A DNA stretch of 64,000 bases from Trinickia caryophylli. GTDB taxonomy: Bacteria > Pseudomonadota > Gammaproteobacteria > Burkholderiales > Burkholderiaceae. Both the position numbers and the translations under genes were made by a program. The notes under the pieces were generated by a model, which did no database searches, was not told the origin of the DNA, and saw nothing but the letters and a program-made list of their open reading frames with translations. Below are positions 1 through 60,696 of this stretch, one piece after another; within the stretch, counting starts at the first letter, position 1, and each line of letters opens with the position of its first letter. The stretch spans positions 62,001 through 126,000 of the forward strand of contig NZ_CP139971.1 of assembly GCF_034424545.1 (NCBI RefSeq), read 5' to 3'.

Positions 1-1732
1 GCGCGAGCACGCGCGCCTTGTTCAGTTCGAGCGGCACCGGCTCCTTGGTTTCCCAGATCGTGATGCCGGCGGCGTCGGCCGCCGCGGCGATGTCCGGATC
101 GGAGCGCAGCCGGAAATGGATGCAGTTGATGATATGCAGGCCGCCACGGATCGCTGTGATGATTGGCGCCTTCCAGTTCGGCGGGAGCTGCGCCGAATGC
201 AGTCCTTTGCCGATCAGCAGCACTTCCGGTTTGGCCTCGAGCGCCTGCTCGACGTTCGCGACTACCGGGATGTTGCCGCCGTAGCCGATCACCTCGCTCA
301 CGCGCTTGCCGGCCTGGGTGCTATCGATCACGGCAAGCGCGGATTCCGGCCGGTAGCGGAGGTAGGAGGCGGCTACCTTGCTGGTGAAGAGGCCGAAGCA
401 GCCCTCGGCGAAGACGACACATCGTTTGGCAAGTAGTTCGGCATGGGTAAGCGTCCGCATGGGAGTCTCCTGTTGTAAATCGACAGAGGCAGTTGAAACG
501 GGAGTGGTGACCAGTTCGTAGCGGGCGACGACCTCGCGGATCGACGCGAGTACCTCGCGCTCACTGGCGCCCTCGATCAGAAAGCGGCCGCCCTGCAGGT
601 GCGTGTAGCCGCCACCAGTGTCCGTCAGCAGGTCGCCTGGCGCCGGAATCAGTTCACGATAGAGGCCGGGGATGCGGCCGAGCAGCGAGCCTGCCGAGAC
701 GACTCGGCGCGGCAGCGGGGTCGGCCGCGGGATCGTCACCCAGCCGGCACTTCGCGGTGGGGATATCACCGGCAGCGCGACGGGCAGATCGAGCGCGGCG
801 TCTACCCACAGGCGGAACAGGTTGATGCCGAACGCGCGATGAACCGTATAGGGCACGTCGGCGCCGGGCACGCGGGCGCCGACTTCCAGGAAGATCAGCT
901 CGCCGTCGCGATTGAACAATTCGAGGTGAAACGCCGAGCCGCGCAACGCCAGCGCGCGCAGGCAGGCGAGCGCGAACGTGCGGCATGCGCGCGCTAGCGG
1001 CGTGTCGGTCTCGATCACCGAGCCGAGCGGCACGCCGGCCTCGAAGTTCAGGCACGACGAGATATAGCGGCTTACGCAGAGGAATAAGCAGTTGCCCGCC
1101 TGATCGAGCACGCCGTCCACGTGCAGAATCTCGCCGTCGATGTATTCCTCGATTTCGTACTGGCCCAGATCAAGCGCGACGAGCGCGGCGCGCAGCGCGT
1201 CGGCCGAGGCCACCTTCTGTACCCCTTTGCTCGATGCGCCGCGAATCGGCTTGACGATCAGCGGAAAGCCGAGTTCGCGCGCGCGCGTCTCGGTCTGCTC
1301 GCGCGTGGTGCAGGCGAACCAGCGCGGTACGCGCAGGTTCGCCGCCTGAAGGACACGCTTCATCTGTGTTTTGTCGCGGAACCGGTCGACCTCCGCACGG
1401 GTCTGGCCGGGGATGTCGAAGCGCTCTCGCATGGCCGCTGCCGGGTCGAGCAGGTACTCCGAGAACGCCAGCAGATGCGATACCGGCCCGTGTTCGACGA
1501 TGGCCCGCTTCACCTGCGCGGCGAGCGCCTCCGTATCGAGGAAATCGTCGACCCGATAAATGTGGCGCGGATCCTGTTCGAACGGCAGCCCGCGGCTGCC
1601 TTCCTCGTCGCAGAGGTAGCTCAGCACGTAGCGAGACGGAATGATTTCGTCGTATCGGCAGAGCTCATGATCCCACTGACGCCCGTTTCCATATTTCGGC
1701 CAGCGATTCATCACGAGGATGTGCGGTTTCAT
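1..1732 (-). CDS. ATP-grasp ligase fused in frame to a DUF1611 domain (3' end outside window)
   Basis: Reading from the ATG at 1732 there is no stop codon down to base 1, giving at least 577 residues. Residues 1-424 form an ATP-grasp enzyme: the central part has the lysine strand FPLIVKPIRGASSKG, then EEYIDGEILHVDGVL and a metal-site strand HLELFNRDGELIFLEVGAR. Such enzymes join a carboxylate to an amine through an acyl phosphate. After a short linker, residues 425 onward match the Rossmann-like N-terminal half of DUF1611 (VVFAEGCFG, AVIDSTQAGK, GGLHIINCIHF); its P-loop half must lie outside the window. The start follows GGGG by five bases and lies 10 bp after the dioxygenase stop, so the two are probably translated together. 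An internal ATG at 460 has its own Shine-Dalgarno. The substrate is unknown; a pathway ligase is inferred from context. Confidence 0.8.
   Translation of the reverse strand, partial: MKPHILVMNRWPKYGNGRQWDHELCRYDEIIPSRYVLSYLCDEEGSRGLPFEQDPRHIYRVDDFLDTEALAAQVKRAIVEHGPVSHLLAFSEYLLDPAAAMRERFDIPGQTRAEVDRFRDKTQMKRVLQAANLRVPRWFACTTREQTETRARELGFPLIVKPIRGASSKGVQKVASADALRAALVALDLGQYEIEEYIDGEILHVDGVLDQAGNCLFLCVSRYISSCLNFEAGVPLGSVIETDTPLARACRTFALACLRALALRGSAFHLELFNRDGELIFLEVGARVPGADVPYTVHRAFGINLFRLWVDAALDLPVALPVISPPRSAGWVTIPRPTPLPRRVVSAGSLLGRIPGLYRELIPAPGDLLTDTGGGYTHLQGGRFLIEGASEREVLASIREVVARYELVTTPVSTASVDLQQETPMRTLTHAELLAKRCVVFAEGCFGLFTSKVAASYLRYRPESALAVIDSTQAGKRVSEVIGYGGNIPVVANVEQALEAKPEVLLIGKGLHSAQLPPNWKAPIITAIRGGLHIINCIHFRLRSDPDIAAAADAAGITIWETKEPVPLELNKARVLA
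458..471 (-). promoter_or_regulatory. internal Shine-Dalgarno and in-frame ATG at the start of the DUF1611 domain
   Basis: On the minus strand AGGAG stands six bases before an ATG at 460 that begins MRTLTHAELL, exactly where the DUF1611 homology starts. It is in frame with the upstream ATP-grasp domain. Either a stand-alone DUF1611 protein is also made, or two genes were joined by loss of a stop codon. Confidence 0.55.
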
Positions 1733-1742
1733 GGTGACCCCG

Positions 1743-2648
1743 TTACTGATGGGTGGCGGGCTGGTGGGGCGGGGTGGAGTAGCCGCTCGACGTGGCGTGC
1801 AGCGGCTTGTCGAGCACGTGCTCGCCCTGCTGGAGCGCGTAGAGCGAGTTGAACGCCTTCTCCGTGATCGGCATCGGATAGGTGCCGGCCTCGCTTGTGA
1901 CGAAGCGGCGCTGCTGCCCGCGCAGCAGGTAGGTACCCGGCTCGTTGTGCGCGGCGTGCGGGCCATAGTAGATCGGTAGCGCGTCGGCGGCGCGGTAGGC
2001 CGGGATGAAGCAGCGACGGTAGCGGTCCGAATGGTTCGGATCGGAGCGGTGCAGCACGCGGCAGTGCAGGAATACGGCGCTGCCGGCACTGCCCGCCGCG
2101 GTCTTTTCCTCGCAGCCGGACGGCAATTTGTCGACACCGACCTTGCCGCGGAAAAAGCCGTTTTCAGAATGGTCGTAGATCTGCGCCTTGTGCGAACCCG
2201 CCAGCACCCGCAGGCAGCCGTTGGATTCGGATGCGTCGTCGAGGTAGATGAGGCAGGCCACGAGCTTCGAATTGGTGTGCGGGTAGTACGAGAAATCCTG
2301 ATGCCATTCCACCGGCGAGCCGACGCGCGGCCCTTTCATGTTGAGCTTGCTGTGGTGGAATACGATGTCCGGGCCGATCAGCGACTCGAGATGATCGAGC
2401 AAGCGAGTGTTTTCCTGCACGGCGCGAAACGCCGCGTGGCGCTTCGACGGTTGCCATATGCGCCGGATCACGGTGGGATCGCTCGGCTCGAGTTCCGCGA
2501 CCTCGCGCAAGTCGGGGGCCGACGCGATAATTTCGTCTATGGCCGCGTGCATGGACGCGACCGCTTCGGTGTCGAGCATGTTCGGAACGACGAGAAATCC
2601 GTCTGCTTCGAACTGAGCGACCTGGGCGGGAGACAGGGGAAAAGACAT
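1743..2648 (-). CDS. phytanoyl-CoA dioxygenase (PhyH) family oxygenase
   Basis: The 301-residue protein has the Fe(II)/2-oxoglutarate double-stranded beta-helix signature of PhyH enzymes: the H-x-D metal pair in VEWHQDFSYYP (H116, D118), and the distal block LHRSDPNHSDRYRR, which supplies the third histidine (about H200) and the 2-oxoglutarate-binding arginine. Family members hydroxylate or desaturate unactivated carbons, often on small-molecule or carrier-bound substrates in biosynthetic pathways. The ATG at 2648 gives a start with normal family length. It lies 10 bp upstream of the ATP-grasp gene and about 215 bp downstream of the LuxR gene, so it probably belongs to the same transcript. 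The substrate cannot be read from sequence. Confidence 0.88.
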   Translation of the reverse strand: MSFPLSPAQVAQFEADGFLVVPNMLDTEAVASMHAAIDEIIASAPDLREVAELEPSDPTVIRRIWQPSKRHAAFRAVQENTRLLDHLESLIGPDIVFHHSKLNMKGPRVGSPVEWHQDFSYYPHTNSKLVACLIYLDDASESNGCLRVLAGSHKAQIYDHSENGFFRGKVGVDKLPSGCEEKTAAGSAGSAVFLHCRVLHRSDPNHSDRYRRCFIPAYRAADALPIYYGPHAAHNEPGTYLLRGQQRRFVTSEAGTYPMPITEKAFNSLYALQQGEHVLDKPLHATSSGYSTPPHQPATHQ

Positions 2649-2863
2649 GGCATTCTCGCAAAGTGGTTGAACACGGCGTGGCCGGCTCGTGTGATCCGGT
2701 GCTCCATGGGAAACCATCGTATCGGCCGCTATAGCGGGCGCCCAGATAGACGAAGGTATGGCATGACGCGTCATAGCCGGAGCTATCATCTGCTCGTCCG
2801 GTCGGGCACTGCCCATGCCGCGGGCGCGCAAGGCAGGTACTACGTTTTTGCGGCGCAGCGAGA

Positions 2864-3268
2864 CTAATTCTCTTCGTGCAAGGCCAGCCAGGGCTCCGCA
2901 TCGCTCGCGCTGTTGATGAGCCGCATGCCTCGCACCGCAGCCTTGGTTCGATTGGTTACGCCAAGCTTCTTGAACAGGATGCCGATATGCATCTTGACCG
3001 TGACGATCTCGATGCCGAGCAGATCGGCAATCGCCTTGTTCTGATAACCGCGGATGATGCAGACCAGAATCTGCTGCTGTCGGGATGACAGCTTGGGGGT
3101 GCCGTAGCACAGGTCCACCGTCGCGCCCTGTCGATGCTCGCCGCGCTGGCTCGGGGCCGGCCCGAACCCGTTGATCTCTGCCAGCGGCGGCGAGCGCCGC
3201 GATCGGGAAGTGTCGTCTTCCTGCTCGACATTTCCGCGTTTTATTTCGAATTCGAATCGCTTTTCCAC
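2864..3268 (-). CDS. short LuxR-type (GerE) DNA-binding regulator
   Basis: The product is about 134 residues. Its last 65 residues are a GerE/LuxR helix-turn-helix (LSSRQQQILVCIIRGYQNKA, then IADLLGIEIVTVKMHIGILF). The first 65 residues are polar and too short for an autoinducer or receiver domain, so no known signal-input domain is visible. I chose GTG 3268 because GGAG lies six bases before it; a TTG at 3289 is possible. The gene sits between the EPSPS-like and dioxygenase genes and is likely the cluster-specific activator. Its HTH has the FixJ/NarL look typical of response regulators that have lost the receiver. Confidence 0.8.
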   Translation of the reverse strand: MEKRFEFEIKRGNVEQEDDTSRSRRSPPLAEINGFGPAPSQRGEHRQGATVDLCYGTPKLSSRQQQILVCIIRGYQNKAIADLLGIEIVTVKMHIGILFKKLGVTNRTKAAVRGMRLINSASDAEPWLALHEEN

Positions 3269-3333
3269 TGCTCTCTCCAAGCGGATCAAACGGAAACACG
3301 CCCAGCGGCGGAGCGACTATATGGGTGCCCGAT

Positions 3334-4680
3334 TTATTCGTCAGCGGCTTCGACGACGTAACGTGCCGATGCCGTGCTTTGAACGCCAAGCGCTTCGAAC
3401 TGATCGAGAAAATCGGGAAACGAGCACGACACGTCGCTGTATCCGTCAAGATTGCAAGCCTTGTCGAAACGCAAAGCTGCCACGAACAGCGACATGAAGT
3501 TGCGATGGTCGCCCTGGCTGCTCAACGACACGCCGCCGGCATAGCGCGGCCTGCCGCGCGTCACGAAGCCGTCGACGTGGCCGTCCCGGTGGTACAGGAT
3601 CTCGATGTCCGCCCCAAGCTTCAGCACTTCGGCCACCATCGACTCGATTCGCGACGACTTGTGAAAGCGCGTGACCGCTCCGCCGCGCACCGTGAATTTT
3701 CCCTCCACGAACAGACTGAGCGCGACCAGCGTCGGAATGATGTTCGGACCGTGGCTGACGTCGAATTCGAAATGCCCCCTCAGGTTGACCGCGCTACTGT
3801 CGACATGCAGCACGCGGCCGGCTTCGTAGCGCATCTTGGCGCCGAGCGCCTCGACGATCTCGACGAACAACTGCTCGCCCTGGAGCGTGACCTTGTCGAT
3901 GCCGCTAATCCGGTAATTGCCCGGGAACAGCACGCAGGCCATTAACAGATACGACAGCGACGTAAAGTCGGCGTTGATCGCGGTTTCGAATGGCTGGTAG
4001 GTGCCAGGATGCGCGCGATACGCGGAATAGTCGTCGCTGGCCTCCACGCTGAGTCCGGCGGTGCGCAGTATGTCCAGCGTTTGCGCGATGTACGAATTCG
4101 ACAGTACCGGCGAAGTCATTTCTATATCAACGCTGCGCTCGCCGAGCGGCGCCGCCATCAGGATCGCGGTGACGAACTGAGAGCTGATGTCACCGGCCAA
4201 CTGACAATGCGTGCCCTTGAGTGCCTTGCCCCAGTTGATCACGGGCGCTTTGTCCTCGTCGCCGAGAAACGTGAAGCTGGCGCCGAGTGAATGCAGCGCG
4301 TCGAACAGCGGTTTCATCACGCGGCGGCGCAGCGTGGCATCGCCGGTCAGAATGGTAGGGAAACCGCGCACGCAGTTCAGCGCCATCATGGTGCGGAACA
4401 CCAGGCCGGAGCCCTTGGCGTCGATCACGTGGATGTCCGTGCTGAAACCGCCTCCCGCACCGGTGATCACCAGCGAATCGTCGGTCTCCTTGATAATCGC
4501 GCCGAGCTTGCGGCACGCGATTTTCATGGTCTCCGTTTCGAGGCAGCGAAGATCGTTATGGATGGTCGACGTACCCGCCGCCAGCGTGGCGGCCAGAATC
4601 GCTCGTTGTGTTTCCGGCTTCGAGGCGGGGGCGCGCATATCCCGCCCCAGCTGTTTGATCGGTTCGACGCGCAGATACAT
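3334..4680 (-). CDS. EPSP-synthase-fold (AroA-like) protein with altered active site
   Basis: The 448-residue protein follows the EPSP synthase fold from end to end: SKPETQRAILAATLAAG near residue 20, a TGDATLRRR strand, SSQF at 166-169, and GDHRNFMSLFVAAL near 391. Canonical enzymes transfer enolpyruvate from PEP to shikimate 3-phosphate. By eye against E. coli AroA, K22, R27, the SSQ triplet, S197/Y200 and R386 are kept, but S23 becomes Pro, catalytic D313 becomes Asn (HGPN), E341 becomes Ser (HKSSR) and K411 becomes Cys (SCSFPD). It is therefore unlikely to be the housekeeping enzyme and probably handles another substrate or reaction in this cluster. Start ATG 4680 has GGGAG five bases upstream; ATG 4692 lacks a ribosome site. 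Confidence 0.82.
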   Translation of the reverse strand: MYLRVEPIKQLGRDMRAPASKPETQRAILAATLAAGTSTIHNDLRCLETETMKIACRKLGAIIKETDDSLVITGAGGGFSTDIHVIDAKGSGLVFRTMMALNCVRGFPTILTGDATLRRRVMKPLFDALHSLGASFTFLGDEDKAPVINWGKALKGTHCQLAGDISSQFVTAILMAAPLGERSVDIEMTSPVLSNSYIAQTLDILRTAGLSVEASDDYSAYRAHPGTYQPFETAINADFTSLSYLLMACVLFPGNYRISGIDKVTLQGEQLFVEIVEALGAKMRYEAGRVLHVDSSAVNLRGHFEFDVSHGPNIIPTLVALSLFVEGKFTVRGGAVTRFHKSSRIESMVAEVLKLGADIEILYHRDGHVDGFVTRGRPRYAGGVSLSSQGDHRNFMSLFVAALRFDKACNLDGYSDVSCSFPDFLDQFEALGVQSTASARYVVEAADE

Positions 4681-4760
4681 ATCCTCTCCCATCTGATTAA
4701 AAACAGGAAATGCCGGAATGGCGAATCCATTCCGGACGCCAGCTCAGGCTGCGGACCGGC

Positions 4761-5513
4761 TTACGCCGCTGTCTTCTCCGCTGCCTTCAGCACTGTGTCT
4801 TCGTAAATTTCGCGGAAGAACATCGAGAGGATTTCCTGTACGTCGTCGATGTATTTGAATACCGCCTGGTAGTCGTCCTCGCTGAGGATGAGCTGGTTCA
4901 GAATCTTCCACATTTCCATCGAGTGATCGTCGCGGGTATCGACCACCAGATGCGCCTCCTGCCCTTTGATTAGATCGTGGCCGAGGGTCGACTTCAGATT
5001 CTTGACGATGTCCGGCTGTAGCTTGGCCTGCGTGTACTCGACCAGGTAATTCGACACCACCGGTGCCATCGGGTGCTCGTGCTCGAGTGTGTAATAGAAA
5101 TAACCTTCGAACAGCTTGGTCGAGAGGTACGGCTCGGTGTTCAGGATCTCCTCCATCGAGACACCGGCAGCCTGACAGTCATGAATGTAAAGCTTGTCGT
5201 GCAGCATCTCGTCGGCCTGATAATGCGCATATTCCTGTGCCGCGGCCGGCGAAATCTGGGCAATCTTATAGATCGCCTTCGATTGGCTCACTCGAGAAAG
5301 GCGAATCCGCCACACGTGCTCGATCAGCGTGCGCCGATAGTAATCCATGTTGATGGTTTTGTCCTTCATATGGGATGCGTATGGCACCGACTGGCGCCAG
5401 ACTTCCATCTTCTTGTCGAGATAGCGGTCGATTTTCAATTTTCGCTCCAATCCCTCCGTGTCGGACAAAAACGGGGACGGATGGCGAATGCCGGTGTGTC
5501 GTACACGATTCAT
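4761..5513 (-). CDS. haem-oxygenase-like diiron oxidase/oxygenase (HDO, TENA/PqqC fold)
   Basis: The 250-residue all-helical protein has carboxylate and histidine residues spaced as in haem-oxygenase-like diiron proteins: E94 and H97 with D101, E102 and H105 (EYAHYQADEMLHD), E144-H147 (LEHEH), and E186/H188 with D195 and H197 (GQEAHLVVDTRDDH). This superfamily includes N-oxygenases and C-C-cleaving enzymes of natural-product pathways such as UndA, SznF and BesC. Start ATG 5513 is preceded by GGAGG at five bases. It is the first gene of the minus-strand cluster and lies 80 bp before the AroA-like gene. The reaction is not predictable, but the family often oxidises amino-acid-derived substrates with O2. 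Confidence 0.78.
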   Translation of the reverse strand: MNRVRHTGIRHPSPFLSDTEGLERKLKIDRYLDKKMEVWRQSVPYASHMKDKTINMDYYRRTLIEHVWRIRLSRVSQSKAIYKIAQISPAAAQEYAHYQADEMLHDKLYIHDCQAAGVSMEEILNTEPYLSTKLFEGYFYYTLEHEHPMAPVVSNYLVEYTQAKLQPDIVKNLKSTLGHDLIKGQEAHLVVDTRDDHSMEMWKILNQLILSEDDYQAVFKYIDDVQEILSMFFREIYEDTVLKAAEKTAA

Positions 5514-5745
5514 GGATACCTCCAAGGGAGCAATCGAAGAAGAAAAAGCCGACGACATGGACCGCCGGTGCGCGAGGGCACGGGCTGTTACAACATCAAC
5601 GATACAGACTACTCATCATGAAAATCTGCTCTTTAGACGCAAAAAACAAGATGACGGTGGAATCTTTATAATTCATGGGATTGTAAGGCTGTTGCAATGT
5701 CGGTTTAATTATTGAAAAAACCAATCGCAATTGCGTTTTTGATTA
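5514..5745. promoter_or_regulatory. AT-rich upstream region of the metabolite cluster
   Basis: Between the diiron gene (minus) and the transposase remnant (plus) the base composition falls sharply compared with the flanks. It holds a perfect palindrome CGCAATTGCG at 5726-5735 flanked by A- and T-runs, and a TATAAA on the minus strand near 5670. The cluster promoter probably lies here. I could not define a convincing -35/-10 pair. Confidence 0.4.
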
Positions 5746-6186
5746 TTGATGTCGCCTGTCAATTATCTTAACTTCTTAATGGGTATGGTATGCGATTTAT
5801 GGGATCTAAAAAGATATCCAAAGGTATGTACCCGGCTTTTCGAAAGTATTGTCATGCGCGTTGCGCAATACTCGGATGAAATCGAAATGCGCATCGGGCG
5901 GCCGGCGCCGCTGGGCTGCGCGCCGGCGGTGGAAGCGACGGGCAGGCGTTTTTCGCTGGAGACGATTTCGGCGGTCAGTGCTCGGGACGAGTTTCGCTTC
6001 ATGGTGCATGAGGGAGCCTTTACCGCTTTGGTCTTGCGGGAGTTTCTCGCTCGCCTGATGCTCGGCACACGCGAGCGGGTATTCCTCGTAGTGGACAGCG
6101 GTCCGATTCATAACGCCATGCTGGTCCAACATTTCATGCGGGCGCAGAAAGGGCGACCGAAGCTGTTCCAGCTTCCGTCTTACTGA
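5746..6186 (+). pseudogene. IS630-family transposase remnant
   Basis: The frame from about 5890 onward matches the middle of IS630 (DDE) transposases: VEATGRRFSLETISAVSARD, FRFMVHEG, then the catalytic-aspartate strand VFLVVDSGPIH and LFQLPSY. It stops exactly where the family continues with SPELNPDE, so the last catalytic glutamate is missing. The first 45 or so residues are AT-rich and do not look like transposase. No full terminal repeats are visible. It is a dead insertion-sequence fragment at the border of the metabolite cluster. Confidence 0.75.
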
Positions 6187-54698: not shown

Positions 54699-56600
54699 AT
54701 GAAACCGGCAACGAATTCGCCATGGCCACGCATTGGCCGATATCTGGTTCTTGGCATGATCGCGACGGCTGTGGCGGCTGCCGCCGTGTTCGTGCACTGG
54801 CGCCATGAGAGCCATCCTCAGGTGACGGGCGTGGCGAGCCAGATGCGAGGCGACGCGTCGGCCTGGACGCGTCAGGAGAAAGACGCCGCGCAGATGCTGC
54901 GCGACATTCGCGAGCGCCGTGTGGCCGCCGTCGGTTTGAGCAAGAGCGCGATCCTCGTGTCGACGACATCTGGCGAAAGGTATTTCGTCACCGACCATAA
55001 CGCGGCGCTTTCGAACGTATTGCTGCAGGACGAATTGAAAGCGGGCGGCGATCCGGCGTATCAACTGGTCTGGCTGCCCGATGCCGACGTGCGAACAGGC
55101 TCGGCCCGCTGGAGCGACGTATTCGACAAGACGCGCGATGCGCTCAGCCTGCTGTTGCCGGTGCTGCTGATGGGCGGGCTGCTCTGGTTCATGCGCCGCG
55201 AAATGCGCGGCGGCGCGAGCCTGCTCGAGAAGTCGCCGACATTGCGCTTTGTGGACGTGATCGGCGCGGGCGAGGCGAAGGCGGCGCTCGCGGACGTGCA
55301 GTCCTATCTGACGAATCCTTCGCAGTTCACGTCGATGGGCGTGCGCGCGCCGTGCGGCGTCCTGATGACGGGCGGGCCGGGGGTCGGCAAGACGCGCCTT
55401 GCGCAGGCGCTGGCCGGCGAATGCGGCGCGAATTTCATTTCGATCACCGGTAGCTACTTCAGCGCGAAGTACTACGGTGTCGGCATCCAGAAGGTCAGGC
55501 ATTTGTTCGAACTCGCGCGCCGTCATGCGCCCACGGTCATCTTCATCGACGAGGCGGACGGTCTCGGCAAGCGTACCGATACGGGCGGGGGCCCCGTGGA
55601 AGCGGAGAGCAACCGCATCATCAATCAGCTGTTGGCGGAAATGGACGGATTCGAGTCGAACGAGGGCGTCATTATCGTCGCGGCCACGAACCACCCCGAC
55701 AATCTCGACGAGGCGATGCGTCGCCCCGGCCGGTTCGACCGAACCGTGCAGGTGCGCCTGCCCGACCTCGACGATCGCGCGCGGATTCTGCGTTTCTATG
55801 CAGCCAAGCTCACGGCGAAAGCCGACGATATCGACTTCGACCAGCTCGCGCGGCTGACGACGGGACTCTCGCCCGCGTCGTTGTCGATGATCGTCAACCA
55901 GGCGGGGCTCGTCGCGCGCAAGGCGGGCGAGAACACCGTCGCGTCGGCGCACTTCCTTGAAGCGATCAAGATCGCCCGTATCGGCGACGTGAGCGGCGCC
56001 GAGCGGGCATTGTCGGACGAGGAGCGCAATCGCATCGCGGTGCACGAGGCGGGGCACGGGCTCGTGGCGGCGCTGCTCGGCACCGGGGTGCTGGAAGAAG
56101 TCACGATTTTGCCGCGCGGCGGCGCGCTGGGTGTCGCGCTCGTTACGAAGATGCAGGACAAGCACCTCTATCGCGAGACCGAGATGCGTAACGAGGTGCA
56201 AGTGCTGCTCGGCGGGCGCAACGCCGAACTGCTCGTGTTTTCCGAGGCATCGAGCGGTGCCGCGCAGGATCTGCAGGAAGCCTCGCGGATCAGTCTGGAC
56301 ATGGTGTCGAAGTACGGCTTCAACGAGGACGGCAATCTGTTCAGTCTGGCCGCCTTGCCGCAGCAGGTGGCCGGCCTTCAGCTGAAAAACGCGATCGAAC
56401 ACGCGAACGTGCTGCTCAAGGACCTCAACGACGCATGCTACGCCTTGCTGCACAGCTACGAGCCCGTGCTGCGCGCGATCGCCGACCAATTGCTCGAGTC
56501 GGAAACCGTGCCGGGCGAAACGGTCTACCGTCTCGTTCGCGAACACGAGGCGGCGACGAACGCCGGCCTGCATCTCGCGCAGGAAGCGGCCGCCGCCTGA
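54699..56600 (+). CDS. FtsH-like membrane AAA+ zinc protease (divergent paralogue)
   Basis: The 633-residue protein has FtsH layout: membrane helices at about 15-33 and 148-164 around a small periplasmic domain, Walker A GGPGVGKT (225-232), pore segment KYYGVG (257-262, normally F-V-G), Walker B IFIDEAD (281-287), arginine finger RRPGRFDR and zinc-binding HEAGH (449-453) with a third ligand aspartate at 524. The E. coli enzyme has GPPGTGKT and FVGVG. It degrades membrane or regulatory proteins. It is clearly diverged and unlikely to be the essential FtsH, which is normally elsewhere (ftsH-rlmE). It is convergent with the chaperone gene. Confidence 0.9.
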
Positions 56601-56612
56601 GCGGCCGCCTCG

Positions 56613-57017
56613 CTAGACGGAAACCGTCTCGTGCAGTGCGATCAGAAGGGCGAAGAACGCGTCCAGCGCCTCGTATAGCTTTTGCGGGGAACGCGCGCAT
56701 TCGCCTTCGAGCAGCAATTTGATTTCATAGACGTCGTTTCGTTTGCCGAACACGGCCTGCCCCGTGACGCAGCCCGGCATGGGATCTTGCAAGCGCGCGA
56801 GAATGGCCGCCGCGTGCCGCTCGATATCGGGAGCGCGGAGCCATCCGATCTGGCTCCATGCCCAGAGCCGATCGTTGTCGTGCGAGAGCAGGATCGTACC
56901 GGCATCGCCCAGTTCGAGGGCGATCGTGCTGTGCTGGTCGAAATCGCCGAGGCGGTCGTCGGGCGCGCCCGCTTCGATCAGGGCGGCACGCAGTGTGTCG
57001 TGCAGCGTCGTGTACAT
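56613..57017 (-). CDS. type III secretion chaperone (InvB/SpaK-like)
   Basis: The 134-residue acidic protein resembles class IB type III chaperones: MYTTLHDTLRAALIEAGAPD, GTILLSHDNDRLWAWSQIGW and a C-terminal helix with DAFFALLIALHE. Such dimers keep effectors secretion-competent. ATG 57017 with AGGAAA upstream gives the usual length; a GTG at 57092 overlaps the effector stop. It directly follows the effector gene, the typical order for a chaperone-effector pair. No type III apparatus gene is in the window. Confidence 0.7.
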   Translation of the reverse strand: MYTTLHDTLRAALIEAGAPDDRLGDFDQHSTIALELGDAGTILLSHDNDRLWAWSQIGWLRAPDIERHAAAILARLQDPMPGCVTGQAVFGKRNDVYEIKLLLEGECARSPQKLYEALDAFFALLIALHETVSV

Positions 57018-57088
57018 CTCGGGTTTTCCTTTGAGGGCGGCGGAGCGAGCGAAGACGGTTGACCGTTCGTGATCGAGCCGTCCGCACG

Positions 57089-58309
57089 TCACTTGGTAAA
57101 TTGCTTCTTTACTGCGGCCAGAATCGGCTCGTTGCTTTGCAGCGACTGCTTCACGTTGGCACCCAATGCGCGGGCCGCTCCCACAGCCTTGATCTCATTG
57201 CCGAGCGCGACATGCGCCGTGCTGGACGAGGTCAGTCGGGCTTCTTTCCTGGTCCGCCTGGCCATGCGGGCCGCCTCTTTTTGCTGGTCGCCGACGGCGG
57301 TCTGAAACGCCTGGCTGACGACGGGCGTTGGCGCAAAGACGTGACGTTTGCTCATGGCTAGCTTTTTCTTTGCCGCTTCCGTCTTGAAGTCCTCCCACTG
57401 TTTATCGAGGTCGGGGTTCCGCTCGAACGACTCCAGATGTTTGTCCTTTTGTTCGGCGAGCGCTCGAGCGGCATCGAGCGAGAACGAAGCGTAGACGTTG
57501 CGCGAAGTCTCCCGCTGGCTGAAGCGGCTGTCCTCGCTCATGATCGCGGGCCCCTCGGCCCACGCGTCCAGAACGACCCGCCCGCCGTCCGGCAGCTTGT
57601 TCTCGGCCCACGCATGGTCCACGCCCGCACCGCTCACGAACTGCAAGGTCTCGCCTTCGCCGAGCTTTCGGGCGTGCGAAACGGTAGCCACGTTTGCATG
57701 CTCGCCGCAGTTGCCGGCCTTCATTTTTATCGCCAGTGCGCCCGCGGCCGCGAGGTCGCCTCTGTACGACTTGGCTTTCATGCGGCCGAACCTCGTCCGC
57801 CAGAACGGTTCTTGTGTTTTGGCGAGGTCGGTCGCCACATTGCCCCGCCCATGAGACAACAGCGCCCGGGTCTTGGTGACCGTGTCATTTGCTTTGCGCA
57901 GACTCGGGAGCTCAGGCCCATCGATGGTTCGATGCAGCGTGGAGCGTGCGGTCAGATAAGCCGCCAGCCCGATGTCTTTCGTGCCGATGCCGCGCTGGGA
58001 GGCGGAGGCCGCATGCATGCTCCGCAGTTCCTTGTCGCGGGACTGCCTGCGCATGTCGAAGATGCGGCCGGCGTCGGCGTCTCGCAGTCTGACGAACGTG
58101 TTGCGGACGGATCGCAGGCCGCCGGCAAGCGAGCGGCCTCCGGGCGCGGCGCAGCCGCCCCGCACCTCGCCGCTGCGCTGTATGCCGTGTGCCGGTACCT
58201 GCGGCCGTTGCAGCGAGGTCGTGCGTGCGGGGGCGCCGGCCGGTTGCGATGCATGCTCGCGCACGGGCGCGGGAGAAGGGGCGTGTCGAAAAAGCGGGAT
58301 CGTGGGCAT
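57089..58309 (-). CDS. putative type III effector with Cys-His-Asp catalytic triad
   Basis: The 406-residue protein has a Pro/Ala/Ser-rich N-terminus (residues 1-45) suitable as a secretion signal and a central domain with KAGNCGEHANVATV (C201), GAGVDHAWAENK (H232) and RVVLDAWAEG (D248), matching the triad spacing of transglutaminase/papain-like effectors such as the HopX/XopE/RipE group. The C-terminal 130 residues are Lys-rich and helical. With an InvB-like chaperone downstream, host-directed proteolysis, deamidation or cross-linking is inferred. Family identity is from motif memory only. Confidence 0.65.
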   Translation of the reverse strand: MPTIPLFRHAPSPAPVREHASQPAGAPARTTSLQRPQVPAHGIQRSGEVRGGCAAPGGRSLAGGLRSVRNTFVRLRDADAGRIFDMRRQSRDKELRSMHAASASQRGIGTKDIGLAAYLTARSTLHRTIDGPELPSLRKANDTVTKTRALLSHGRGNVATDLAKTQEPFWRTRFGRMKAKSYRGDLAAAGALAIKMKAGNCGEHANVATVSHARKLGEGETLQFVSGAGVDHAWAENKLPDGGRVVLDAWAEGPAIMSEDSRFSQRETSRNVYASFSLDAARALAEQKDKHLESFERNPDLDKQWEDFKTEAAKKKLAMSKRHVFAPTPVVSQAFQTAVGDQQKEAARMARRTRKEARLTSSSTAHVALGNEIKAVGAARALGANVKQSLQSNEPILAAVKKQFTK

Positions 58310-58578
58310 AGCGTCATACCGGGGAGAGAAATTCGGTCATTGCACCGTTGCAGGGATCGGGCTTGCGGCCTGGCGGCCGGAAATCGCTCCCCTCGGTGCA
58401 GACTAGAAAATCGTCCCGCCTTCGGCTTTCGAAAAGGGCGCGGCGCTTTCGAGAACGCCTATGTGCGCGCGCGCGGCGTGCTGGCCGAACGCCGCGGCCG
58501 GACGTATCATCACTGACCGTGGGCGTTGCTGGCAGTGATTCCGCGCAGTTTTCATGGGCACCAACAAGGAGATGGCCG

Positions 58579-60696
58579 ATGAGACGTGTGACGATTGCAA
58601 CCGGGGGTTCAGCGCTCGTGGCGGGCGCGGCAATGGCAGCGGCGATGCTGTCTTTCCAGGCACATGCCGACGACGGCGACGACATCGCCTTCGCAACCGA
58701 CAGTCCGCCGCCTTTCGTCGTCGCGGGCAGTTTGCGTATCACGTCATATGACGGCACTGCCGACGATCTGCTGACGGCGGGCCTTGGAAAAACAGGGCTT
58801 GCCGGTGCCGCGCCGGCTGTCGCCGACCCGGCGAATCCCACCGCTGCCGAGCTGAGGCGGCTCGCGGTCTGGTCGAACTACCGGGCACTCGTCGATATGA
58901 CCGCGAACGGCGGCTATGGCCGGTACTGGGGCCCCAATGTCGACCTCGACGGCAACGACACGCTCGGCGAAGGAAAGATCGCCGGAACCGAGTACCTCGC
59001 TTATGCCGACGACGGCAGCGGCCGGCGCAACGTAACGTTGCTCGTTCAGGTGCCGGCGCGCTTCGATCCGGCGAATCCCTGCATCGTCACGGCCACGTCC
59101 TCGGGTTCGCGCGGCGTCTACGGTGCGATCTCGGCTGCGGGCGAGTGGGGGCTCAAGCGCGGGTGCGCCGTTGCCTATACGGATAAAGGATCGGGTAACG
59201 GCGCGCACGAACTGATGACGAATCGCGTCACATTGATCGACGGCCGCGTGGCCGATGCCGCCGCCGCTGGAAAAGACAGTCTGTTCACAGCCAATATATC
59301 CGCGCGTGCGCGTGACGCGTTCGATCGCGCATACCCGAACCGCTATGCTTTCAAGCACGCGCATTCGCAGCAAAACCCCGAAGCGCAATGGGGAAAGGAT
59401 ACGCTGCGCGCGATCCAATTCGCCTATTGGGTTTTGAATCGCCAGTTTCCGCCGGCCGCGGTCTCTGCGCGCGAACGCGTGCGCTATCGGCCCGGCAGCA
59501 TCACGACGATTGCGGCGTCGGTGAGCAATGGCGGCGGGGCCTCGCTTGCCGCCGCCGAAGAGGACCGGCGCGGCTGGATCACGGGCGTCGTCGTGGGCGA
59601 GCCGCAGGTCAGCGTGCGGATGCCGCGTCGCGCTGAGATCGTCGAGGGCGGCGAGCGTATCGCGGCGGCGGGCAAGCCGCTTGCCGACTACATGACGCTG
59701 GCCAATCTGCTTGCGCCGTGCGCGGCGCTTGCGCCCGATGCGGCCGGCGCGCCGTATCTGACGGCATTGCCGGTCGCCACCACGACGGCGATCCGGCAAG
59801 CGCGCTGCACTTCGTTGGCCGCGGCGGGCTTGATCGATGGAGGCGATACGCCGGCGCAGGCGGCCGATGCGCTTGCGCGTTTGCATCAGGCCGGCTACGA
59901 GTCGGACTCGGACGTCCTGCACGCTCCGATGTGGGATTCGCAGGCGGTGCCCGCCGTCGCCGTCACTTACGCGAACGCCTATACCCGTTCGAGCGTGCTG
60001 GCCAATCTATGCGGCTTCAGCTTCGGGACAACCGACGCGAGCGGCGCAGCCGGCGTTGCGCCGCTCGTCTCGCCGATGCCGACGGTGTTCGGTGTCGGCA
60101 ACGGCGTGCCTCCGACCAACGGCATCAACCTCGTCTATAACCTCACACCTCCCGGCGGCGCGGATCATCGGCTGGCCACCGCCGATGCGAGCTTCACGGG
60201 GGCGGCATGTCTGCGTGCACTTTGGACGAGGGGCGACGCACGCATGCATGCGAGTGTCGACGCCATCCGAGTCGATGGCGATCTGCATCGCAAGCCCACC
60301 ATCATCGTTCAGGGCCGCAGTGACGCGCTCATACCGGTCAACCATGCCTCGCGCGCTTATCTGGCTGCCAACAGCGTGCATGAGGGGCGGCGCAGCGCTT
60401 TGTCCTATTACGAAGTCCTCAACGGCCAGCATTTCGATGCGTTTCTGGGGGTGCCCGGCTTCGATACGCGTTTCGTGCCCGTTCATTACTACTACACGCA
60501 GGCACTCAACCTCATGTGGCGGCACCTGAAAAACGGTGTGGCGCTGCCGCCTTCGCAGGTCGTTCGCACGGTGCCGCGCGGCGGTACGCCGGGAGCCGCC
60601 CCCGCGCTCGCGGCCGCAAACCTTCCCGACATCGTGATGAATCCGGGCAGCAATGCGATCGACGTCAACCGCGGCACCGTGCGGGTACCACGCTAG
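58579..60696 (+). CDS. D-(-)-3-hydroxybutyrate oligomer hydrolase
   Basis: The 705-residue enzyme has a signal peptide (about 1-30, ending QAHAD) and long matches to PHB oligomer hydrolases: YLAYADDGSGRRNVTLLVQV, the catalytic serine in SSGSRGVYG, YTDKGSGNGAHELMTN and NGQHFDAFLG near the C-terminus with the histidine. It cleaves soluble 3-hydroxybutyrate oligomers to monomer. AAGGAG seven bases before ATG 58579 supports this start over an upstream in-frame one. The stop falls in a CTAG that is also the stop of the opposite gene. Confidence 0.92.
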   Translation: MRRVTIATGGSALVAGAAMAAAMLSFQAHADDGDDIAFATDSPPPFVVAGSLRITSYDGTADDLLTAGLGKTGLAGAAPAVADPANPTAAELRRLAVWSNYRALVDMTANGGYGRYWGPNVDLDGNDTLGEGKIAGTEYLAYADDGSGRRNVTLLVQVPARFDPANPCIVTATSSGSRGVYGAISAAGEWGLKRGCAVAYTDKGSGNGAHELMTNRVTLIDGRVADAAAAGKDSLFTANISARARDAFDRAYPNRYAFKHAHSQQNPEAQWGKDTLRAIQFAYWVLNRQFPPAAVSARERVRYRPGSITTIAASVSNGGGASLAAAEEDRRGWITGVVVGEPQVSVRMPRRAEIVEGGERIAAAGKPLADYMTLANLLAPCAALAPDAAGAPYLTALPVATTTAIRQARCTSLAAAGLIDGGDTPAQAADALARLHQAGYESDSDVLHAPMWDSQAVPAVAVTYANAYTRSSVLANLCGFSFGTTDASGAAGVAPLVSPMPTVFGVGNGVPPTNGINLVYNLTPPGGADHRLATADASFTGAACLRALWTRGDARMHASVDAIRVDGDLHRKPTIIVQGRSDALIPVNHASRAYLAANSVHEGRRSALSYYEVLNGQHFDAFLGVPGFDTRFVPVHYYYTQALNLMWRHLKNGVALPPSQVVRTVPRGGTPGAAPALAAANLPDIVMNPGSNAIDVNRGTVRVPR

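What the first reader, a model, noticed from the sequence alone, without database searches (positions are those of the whole stretch)
1..5513. Candidate new biosynthetic cluster: ATP-grasp, DUF1611, PhyH, EPSPS-like and diiron oxygenase
Five enzymes with complementary chemistry and a cluster-type LuxR regulator lie in one minus-strand block. The EPSPS fold, a diiron HDO enzyme, a PhyH oxygenase and a carboxylate-amine ligase together suggest a small amino-acid- or shikimate-related metabolite. I do not know a described pathway with this exact set. The order is HDO, AroA-like, LuxR, PhyH, ATP-grasp-DUF1611.
Basis: partly seen in the sequence, partly recalled or inferred. Interest (0 to 1): 0.88.

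Follow-up and report, generated by a model that had tools for sequence, protein, structure and literature searches.

The report
Unstudied peptide pathway with repurposed EPSPS
A block of genes that recurs in distantly related bacteria probably makes a small modified peptide from a building block made by a repurposed copy of the glyphosate-target enzyme; its product is not known.

Summary
On one strand lie a diiron HDO, an EPSPS-like protein, a GerE-only regulator, a PhyH oxygenase and a fused ATP-grasp–DUF1611 protein. Left of the window follow a second ATP-grasp, a malic-enzyme-like, a lipocalin-like, an EamA and an enolase-superfamily protein.

The core set is conserved. Of 45 public loci with the EPSPS-like protein, 40 carry PhyH and 29 the HDO; all 29 also carry DUF1611 and the second ATP-grasp, 28 the first. 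They include Burkholderia, Achromobacter, Caballeronia, Shewanella, Pseudoalteromonas and Streptomyces.

The EPSPS-like protein is not AroA. In all 120 listed relatives (of 208) Asp313 is Asn; in 119 Glu341 is Lys (one gapped). The host's own AroA lies elsewhere and keeps both. The HDO keeps all six iron ligands of MboA, the mangotoxin acetylenase.

Best reading: an unstudied family of ATP-grasp small-peptide clusters in which EPSPS-like plus PhyH make a precursor acid. The two parts co-vary as separate modules. Product and reaction order are inferred. The shikimate-metabolite idea is not supported directly.

The parts
4761..5513 (-). HDO: heme-oxygenase-like diiron oxidase of the MboA type, 250 aa
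3334..4680 (-). EPSPS-like protein (neofunctionalised paralogue of AroA), 448 aa
2864..3289 (-). Regulator with a GerE/LuxR-type helix-turn-helix only, 141 aa (start codon unsure)
   Evidence: PF00196 1.4e-14; besides it only a sub-threshold Sigma70_r4_2 match on the same stretch
1743..2648 (-). PhyH: Fe(II)/2-oxoglutarate oxygenase, 301 aa
   Evidence: PF05721 6e-34; H116-x-D118, H195, H200, R211 conserved (97% or more) in 39 sequences
1..1732 (-). Fused ATP-grasp ligase (residues 1 to about 420) and DUF1611 (rest); 789 aa, the last 638 bases lie left of the window (whole gene C2:61363-63732)
   Evidence: PF13535 6.7e-09, PF17396 3.5e-19, PF07755 3e-59; PDB: L-amino acid ligase 3vot 6.4e-15 and DUF1611 2obn 7e-54; the two halves are separate genes in the Achromobacter, Streptomyces and Caballeronia clusters looked at

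Best explanation
The block is one member of an unstudied family of ATP-grasp small-peptide biosynthetic clusters. SHOWN by sequence: the core gene set is conserved across two phyla; EPSPS-like and PhyH co-vary as one module, and HDO, both ATP-grasps and DUF1611 as another; the EPSPS-like protein has lost the acid-base residues of EPSP synthase but keeps the residues recalled as PEP and phosphate contacts; the HDO keeps the diiron ligands of MboA. INFERRED: (1) the EPSPS-like enzyme joins a PEP-derived three-carbon acid to a small, probably phosphorylated, acceptor, or acts on such an adduct, and PhyH oxidises it, giving an unusual 2-oxo or 2-hydroxy acid; (2) a partner gene that differs between clusters finishes this acid: HisC-type transamination in Streptomyces and Caballeronia, a malic-enzyme-like oxidation or decarboxylation here; (3) the two L-amino-acid-ligase-like ATP-grasp enzymes couple it into a di- or tripeptide; (4) the HDO oxidises, probably desaturates, the peptide or its residue; (5) DUF1611 (DgcN relative) acylates or otherwise masks an acidic amino group; (6) in this genome EamA may export the product and the GerE protein may regulate the genes. 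The likely role is an antimetabolite, as for mangotoxin, but no activity was tested.
For: Co-occurrence, EPSPS-first: 45 of 55 fetched loci have a match of 200 bits or more; of these 45, PhyH in 40, HDO in 29, DUF1611 and ATP-grasp 2 in all 29, ATP-grasp 1 in 28. HDO-first: 35 HDO places in 30 of 398 family genomes; 13 of the 14 places at 52% identity or more have the EPSPS-like gene within about 9.5 kb, and the 14th runs off its contig inside PhyH. Distance correlation over 30 complete clusters: EPSPS-PhyH 0.88; among HDO, ATP-grasp 1, DUF1611 and ATP-grasp 2 0.84-0.91; between the two groups 0.53-0.70. Residues: D313N and S23P in 120 of 120 listed proteins (of 208 hits), E341K and K340H in 119 (one gapped), against retention in the host's own AroA. 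HDO ligands: 25 of 25 rows. Both ATP-grasp proteins match L-amino acid ligase 3vot. MboA acts on an ATP-grasp-made tripeptide (PMC13185094, parts 1 and 2 of 6 read, passages besides). Swapped downstream genes: HisC-type in 24 of 29 HDO loci, malic-like in 4, never both; sulfopyruvate-decarboxylase-like pair or acetolactate-synthase-like enzyme in clusters without the HDO.
Against: No product, substrate or expression evidence. The intermediate acid is deduced from the chemistry of swapped partner genes only. In the window-type cluster no aminotransferase was recognised, so how the acid enters a peptide is open. MboA needs the reductase MboB; none was recognised among the ten genes here, although Caballeronia-type clusters carry a small 2Fe-2S protein. 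EamA and the enolase-superfamily gene occur in only 2 of the 29 HDO loci, so export and that step are not part of the common core. EPSPS-like genes stand without PhyH in L026 (near NRPS genes) and L045, so PhyH is not obligatory. Cross-module correlations are also positive, as shared descent alone would give. E. coli residue numbers and roles are recalled; the Lys411 column depends on the alignment (two Streptomyces rows show Lys there, none). A divergent relative, L052, has Thr at 313.
Confidence: 0.62

Rival explanations
1. The EPSPS-like protein is a second EPSP synthase that raises shikimate flux or gives self-resistance to an EPSPS-directed product of the cluster.
For: Fold and PF00275 match are clear. 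In 6 of 11 genomes the cluster copy even clears NCBI's aroA cut-off.
Against: D313 and E341 are replaced in the listed subfamily, K411 too in that alignment. A higher-scoring AroA stands elsewhere in 11 of 11 genomes. It pairs with PhyH, which flux or resistance does not explain.
Confidence: 0.1
2. The pathway makes a phosphonate or sulfonate amino acid: partner genes (HisC-type transaminase, sulfopyruvate/phosphonopyruvate-decarboxylase-like subunits, SsuD-like monooxygenase, PhyH) resemble those that process phosphono- or sulfopyruvate.
For: Sulfopyruvate decarboxylase alpha and beta models are the best matches in L041 (4.9e-34, 1.7e-39), with phosphonopyruvate decarboxylase second and third; alkanesulfonate monooxygenase is the best match of the LLM protein of L014; PhyH has a weak match to methylphosphonate hydroxylase. 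The own genome has a PEP mutase over the cut-off, though 0.68 Mb away.
Against: No PEP mutase was found in the cluster. Over the cut-off it is present in only 6 of 20 carrier genomes; two more come near it (290.5 and 275.9 against 319.55 bits). Apart from HisC, these partner matches are below the curated cut-offs.
Confidence: 0.12
3. It is a mangotoxin-like acetylenic peptide cluster, and EPSPS-like and PhyH only make an accessory residue.
For: HDO relation to MboA including Tyr82 and Asp90 equivalents; two ATP-grasp ligases, as in mbo.
Against: No recognised MboB-like reductase or MboE-like arginine deiminase among the ten genes. EPSPS-like and PhyH recur without the HDO, so they have a use of their own.
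Confidence: 0.3
4. The genes are neighbours by chance or are conserved housekeeping genes.
For: None found beyond the presence of an AroA-type domain.
Against: EPSPS-like absent at E 1e-60 from 60 of 60 related genomes in the first look, 10 of the same genus, yet the core set is complete in distant groups; the block lies where synteny with congeners breaks.
Confidence: 0.02

Closest known systems
Mangotoxin cluster mboABCDEF (Pseudomonas; PMC13185094)
   Same: MboA-type HDO with all six metal ligands plus the Tyr82 and Asp90 equivalents; two ATP-grasp ligases; no NRPS domain recognised among the ten genes
   Different: EPSPS-like, PhyH, DUF1611, malic-like, EamA and enolase-superfamily genes; no recognised reductase MboB or deiminase MboE
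EPSP synthase AroA and UDP-GlcNAc enolpyruvyl transferase MurA
   Different: S23P, N94G, D313N, K340H, E341K fixed in the listed relatives, T97L in 119 of 120; separate from AroA on a quick tree
Dipeptide clusters with L-amino acid ligases (BL00235, BacD)
   Same: Both ATP-grasp proteins match the BL00235 structure 3vot
   Different: Low similarity; different precursor genes; HDO tailoring
DgcN (DUF1611 N-acetyltransferase; D-glutamate as substrate recalled)
   Same: Both DUF1611 Pfam domains present
   Different: 190.8 bits against an equivalog cut-off of 480; the enolase-superfamily gene matches talarate/galactarate dehydratase (184.9) far better than the partner racemase DgcA (40.5)
NikO/PolA, enolpyruvyl transferases of nikkomycin and polyoxin (recalled)
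   Same: EPSPS-family enzymes moved into natural-product pathways
   Different: Recalled to act on UMP in nucleoside pathways; no sequence comparison was made here

Membership tests
EPSP synthase (AroA, TIGR01356) | EPSP synthase fold over full length | tested here: met
EPSP synthase (AroA, TIGR01356) | Score over the curated equivalog cut-off | tested here: not met
   275.2 against 287.25 bits; but 6 of 11 cluster copies pass it
EPSP synthase (AroA, TIGR01356) | Catalytic residues D313, E341, K411 (roles recalled) | tested here: not met
   N, K and C in the window protein; the host's own AroA on C1 keeps all three
MboA-type HDO | Six diiron ligands, 3 His and 3 Glu/Asp | tested here: met
   All conserved in the printed alignment to MboA and in 25 of 25 rows
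MboA-type HDO | Dedicated flavin/2Fe-2S reductase MboB in the operon | tested here: not met
   No such domain in Pfam scans of the ten genes; the rest of the genome was not searched
MboA-type HDO | Makes an alkyne on a peptide | not testable with these tools
   Needs an enzyme assay
Mangotoxin cluster | Full gene set mboA-F including deiminase MboE | tested here: not met
   No deiminase or amidinotransferase domain among the ten genes
ATP-grasp L-amino acid ligase cluster | ATP-grasp proteins related to a known L-amino acid ligase | tested here: met
   3vot: 6.4e-15 and 1.9e-09
ATP-grasp L-amino acid ligase cluster | Ligates amino acids | not testable with these tools
   Substrates unknown
DgcN N-acetyltransferase | Equivalog score (cut-off 480) | tested here: not met
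   190.8 bits
PEP-mutase phosphonate cluster | PEP mutase gene in the cluster | tested here: not met
   Four matches in the own genome, the only one over the cut-off at C2:743438, none within the cluster
LuxR quorum-sensing regulator | Autoinducer-binding domain | tested here: not met
   Only GerE over its cut-off
Known MIBiG cluster | Same gene set as an entry | not tested
   MIBiG not on hand; ten literature searches only

The most novel reading that the evidence does not exclude
The EPSPS-like subfamily is a new PEP-using biosynthetic enzyme. Asp313 and Glu341 are lost in all listed relatives; the PDB holds the trapped tetrahedral adduct of EPSPS mutated at Asp313 (1q36, title). The enzyme may therefore stop at, or divert from, the addition step rather than release an enolpyruvyl ether, and hand the adduct to its PhyH partner. 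This precursor module would feed several different pathways: ATP-grasp peptides, and clusters of the sulfopyruvate-decarboxylase and acetolactate-synthase types; in one genome the EPSPS-like gene alone stands near an NRPS.
Probability: 0.3. Interest if true: 0.85.

Novelty: new variant of a known kind. Interest (0 to 1): 0.62.

Why it matters
A pathway family found in Pseudomonadota and Streptomyces is easily missed because its marker enzyme is named AroA in databases; in 6 of 11 genomes checked the copy even clears NCBI's aroA cut-off. If the enzyme uses PEP in a new way it would add a further natural job of the EPSPS/MurA fold (the nikkomycin-type transferases, recalled, are another) and a marker for finding unknown small peptides and antimetabolites. 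It also gives a second setting in which to test what MboA-type diiron enzymes can do.

Tried and rejected
Phosphonate pathway by PEP mutase: rejected as the general route, because the mutase is not found over the cut-off in 14 of 20 carrier genomes (the genomes of 20 of the 45 loci were searched). Shikimate flux or self-resistance: rejected as the main reading, because catalytic residues are lost and AroA stands elsewhere. Vfm signal of Dickeya: followed because a paper listing held DUF1611; term searches of PMC9306890 found no phosphoshikimate, aroA, oxygenase or ligase; dropped. Class-I aminoacyl-tRNA-synthetase-like peptide systems (PMC2922099, passages only): share oxygenase types, no EPSPS. 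Passages only were also seen of PMC12723261, PMC6695200 and PMC13108848; none names this gene set. Plasmid collection search with the EPSPS-like protein gave 67 records, all under 60% identity, about 30% at best in the rows listed.

Empty-site test: the left flank is syntenic in six congeners up to about C2:55760; in two of them (L136, L138) the next homology is C2:96.8-97.6 kb. Only about C2:44001-102000 of the own genome was compared, and an exact insertion site could not be read.

Controls that failed: two rows meant as Streptomyces and Caballeronia AroA were wrong-frame reads and the Pseudomonas row was unreliable; they were dropped. The valid controls are E. coli AroA and the host's own AroA. 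One search gives only the quick tree; the careful search did not finish and some long branches are unsafe. In one search MboA was not among the 50 listed rows, whose library ends in April 2026; this says nothing against kinship. Gene calls in high-GC loci were partly wrong; counts rest on stop-to-stop frames.

Literature: ten searches listed no paper recognised as describing this gene set. The library holds open-licence papers only. PMC13185094 reports at least 25 HDO plus ATP-grasp cluster types in a supplementary figure not seen here; this cluster may be among them.
Full report
WHAT IS THERE. The window is G000:C2:62001-126000 of a two-contig, 6.59 Mb genome. Its genus (g1, 11 genomes held) differs from the group g12 of G361, whose contig length equals that of a Burkholderia plantarii record; the species is not told. 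Reading the minus strand from right to left: HDO 4761-5513, EPSPS-like 3334-4680, GerE-only regulator 2864-3289, PhyH 1743-2648, and a 789-aa fused ATP-grasp–DUF1611 protein from 1732 to beyond the window edge (C2:61363). Outside the window follow ATP-grasp 2 (C2:60056-61366, overlapping the fused gene by four bases), a malic-enzyme-like protein (58813-59976), a lipocalin-like protein (58011-58529), an EamA transporter (57004-57930) and an enolase-superfamily protein (55863-56948). Beyond them lie genes that look like cobalamin synthesis by eye (no family search). To the right lies a DDE_3 transposase piece at 5743-6183. GC is 61% and 55% in the bins 2001-4000 and 4001-6000, against 62-70% in the other 2-kb bins.

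CONSERVATION. A scan of genome contigs with an alignment of the EPSPS-like family gave 55 loci. Ten of these are weak: seven archaeal, two fragments (L054, L055) and one divergent Streptomyces protein (L052). Of the 45 with 200 bits or more to the window protein, 40 have PhyH. Of the five without, L008 and L025 end at a contig edge on the side where PhyH is expected; L026, L044 and L045 show none in the DNA held. The HDO is found in 29 of 45; all 29 have DUF1611 and ATP-grasp 2, and 28 have ATP-grasp 1, the exception being L008 at its contig edge. None of the seven archaeal loci has any of them. The reverse test started from the HDO: 30 of 398 family genomes hold 35 places. Of 14 places at 52% identity or more, 13 have the EPSPS-like gene in reach and the 14th ends at a contig end. 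Of the 21 weaker places, seven were fetched and none has it. In a first look at 60 related genomes, ten of the same genus, none had the EPSPS-like protein at E 1e-60: the cluster is sporadic within the genus and family and shared between distant groups.

MODULES. Pairwise distances over 30 clusters that hold all six core proteins separate two groups: EPSPS-like with PhyH (Spearman 0.88), and HDO, ATP-grasp 1, DUF1611 and ATP-grasp 2 with each other (0.84-0.91); across groups 0.53-0.70. For none of the 15 pairs did any of 300 permutations reach the observed value. Shared descent contributes to all of these, so the contrast between groups is the informative part. The window's second module is closer to Streptomyces (HDO 65-69%, ATP-grasps about 50%, DUF1611 61-65%) than to Caballeronia (52-54%, 34-39%, 46-47%), while EPSPS-like is equally far from both, at 50-52%.

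SWAPPED PARTNERS. Of the 29 HDO loci, 24 have a HisC-type aminotransferase, four have the malic-enzyme-like protein instead, none has both, and one (L032) has neither over 90 bits; an SsuD-like flavin monooxygenase is found in 15; EamA and the enolase-superfamily protein in 2. B. paludis and B. stagnalis carry EPSPS-like and PhyH with a two-subunit decarboxylase nearest to sulfopyruvate decarboxylase, and share an aldehyde dehydrogenase and an MFS transporter (NCBIfam models run on the B. stagnalis proteins). Pseudomonas and Xenorhabdus (six loci) carry them with an acetolactate-synthase-like enzyme and an MFS transporter, most with an SDR. Nonomuraea L050 has them beside amino-acid-type ABC transporter genes; Actinacidiphila L026 has the EPSPS-like gene near NRPS genes without PhyH. 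On a quick tree the subfamily lies apart from canonical AroA (96%), the window type groups with the sulfopyruvate-decarboxylase type (100%), and the acetolactate-synthase type groups with the Caballeronia type (99%); the tool warns of long branches. Decarboxylases and transaminases at the same point of the pathway suggest that EPSPS-like plus PhyH make a 2-oxo or 2-hydroxy acid. This is inference.

THE EPSPS-LIKE PROTEIN IS NOT AROA. The search gave 208 proteins at E 1e-60 or better, of which the best 120, the window's own included, are listed. In 120 of these 120 Ser23 is Pro, Asn94 is Gly and Asp313 is Asn; in 119 Lys340 is His and Glu341 is Lys (one row is gapped). Lys411 is replaced in 119 and gapped in one, but this column is unsure: in the smaller alignment two Streptomyces rows show Lys there. 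Lys22 (119 of 120), Arg27, Arg124, Ser169, Ser170, Gln171, Ser197, Arg344 (119), His385 and Arg386 stay (E. coli numbers and roles recalled, E. coli AroA sequence). The host's own AroA at C1:3572970-3574229 (455.6 bits) keeps all of these; of the residues compared it differs from E. coli only at Asn336. Divergent L052 has Thr at 313 and Lys at 341. That is the root of the novel reading: an Asn at 313 throughout may mean that the reaction ends at or leaves from that adduct.

THE HDO. Its best solved relative by sequence is MboA (E 8e-16). In the printed alignment, with the chain offset worked out by hand, the MboA ligands Glu86, His89, Glu143, His172, Asp176 and His181 and the residues Tyr82 and Asp90 (named in PMC13185094) fall on E102, H105, E159, H188, D192, H197, Y98 and D106, all invariant in 25 aligned rows. 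MboA desaturates the C-terminal residue of a tripeptide made by two ATP-grasp ligases (PMC13185094, parts 1 and 2 of 6 read). The two ATP-grasp proteins here match the L-amino acid ligase 3vot. A peptide substrate for this HDO is therefore the most economical guess, but desaturation is not shown.

NOVELTY. Ten searches of an open-licence library listed no description that I recognised. PMC13185094 counts at least 25 kinds of HDO plus ATP-grasp clusters in a figure not seen here, so the cluster type may have been tabulated. I rate it a new variant of a known kind: ATP-grasp small-peptide clusters are known, the precursor module is not, as far as these searches reach.

LIMITS. No product, expression or activity data; MIBiG not on hand; residue roles partly recalled; tree quick only.

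Noticed in passing
L004:2377-8109 (own genome, about C2:422.4-428.1 kb): A second cluster with a 44% identical HDO, three ATP-grasp-type proteins (one below the Pfam cut-off) and a second HDO-family protein (PF14518 1.1e-32), with no EPSPS-like match in the 16 kb held. Six of the seven weaker HDO places fetched from family genomes (L106-L111) have an HDO with two recognised ATP-grasp genes.
   Followed up: partly
window 1-1732 and C2:61363-63732: ATP-grasp and DUF1611 are fused here and in B. plantarii (5 fused proteins among 12 hits); they are separate genes in the other relatives looked at.
   Followed up: yes
window 5743-6183: DDE_3 transposase piece directly right of the cluster.
   Followed up: no
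C2:55760 to about C2:96813 (window up to about 34813): Synteny with six congeners ends just left of the cluster; in two of them the next homology is 41 kb away in this genome, so the cluster lies in a variable block.
   Followed up: partly
L011, L012, L017, L019, L035, L049: Cluster copies of the EPSPS-like protein clear NCBI's aroA equivalog cut-off in 6 of 11 genomes searched, so database names are unsafe.
   Followed up: yes
L026:9539-11362: EPSPS-like gene near NRPS condensation and AMP-binding genes in Actinacidiphila acididurans, with no HDO or PhyH in the 21 kb held.
   Followed up: no
L052:9584-12701: Streptomyces abyssalis has two EPSPS-family genes in tandem, followed by asparagine-synthase-like and methyltransferase genes.
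   Followed up: no
G000:C2:2070780-2072003 (L141): A further, very divergent EPSP-synthase-family match in the own genome (46.7 bits to aroA).
   Followed up: no
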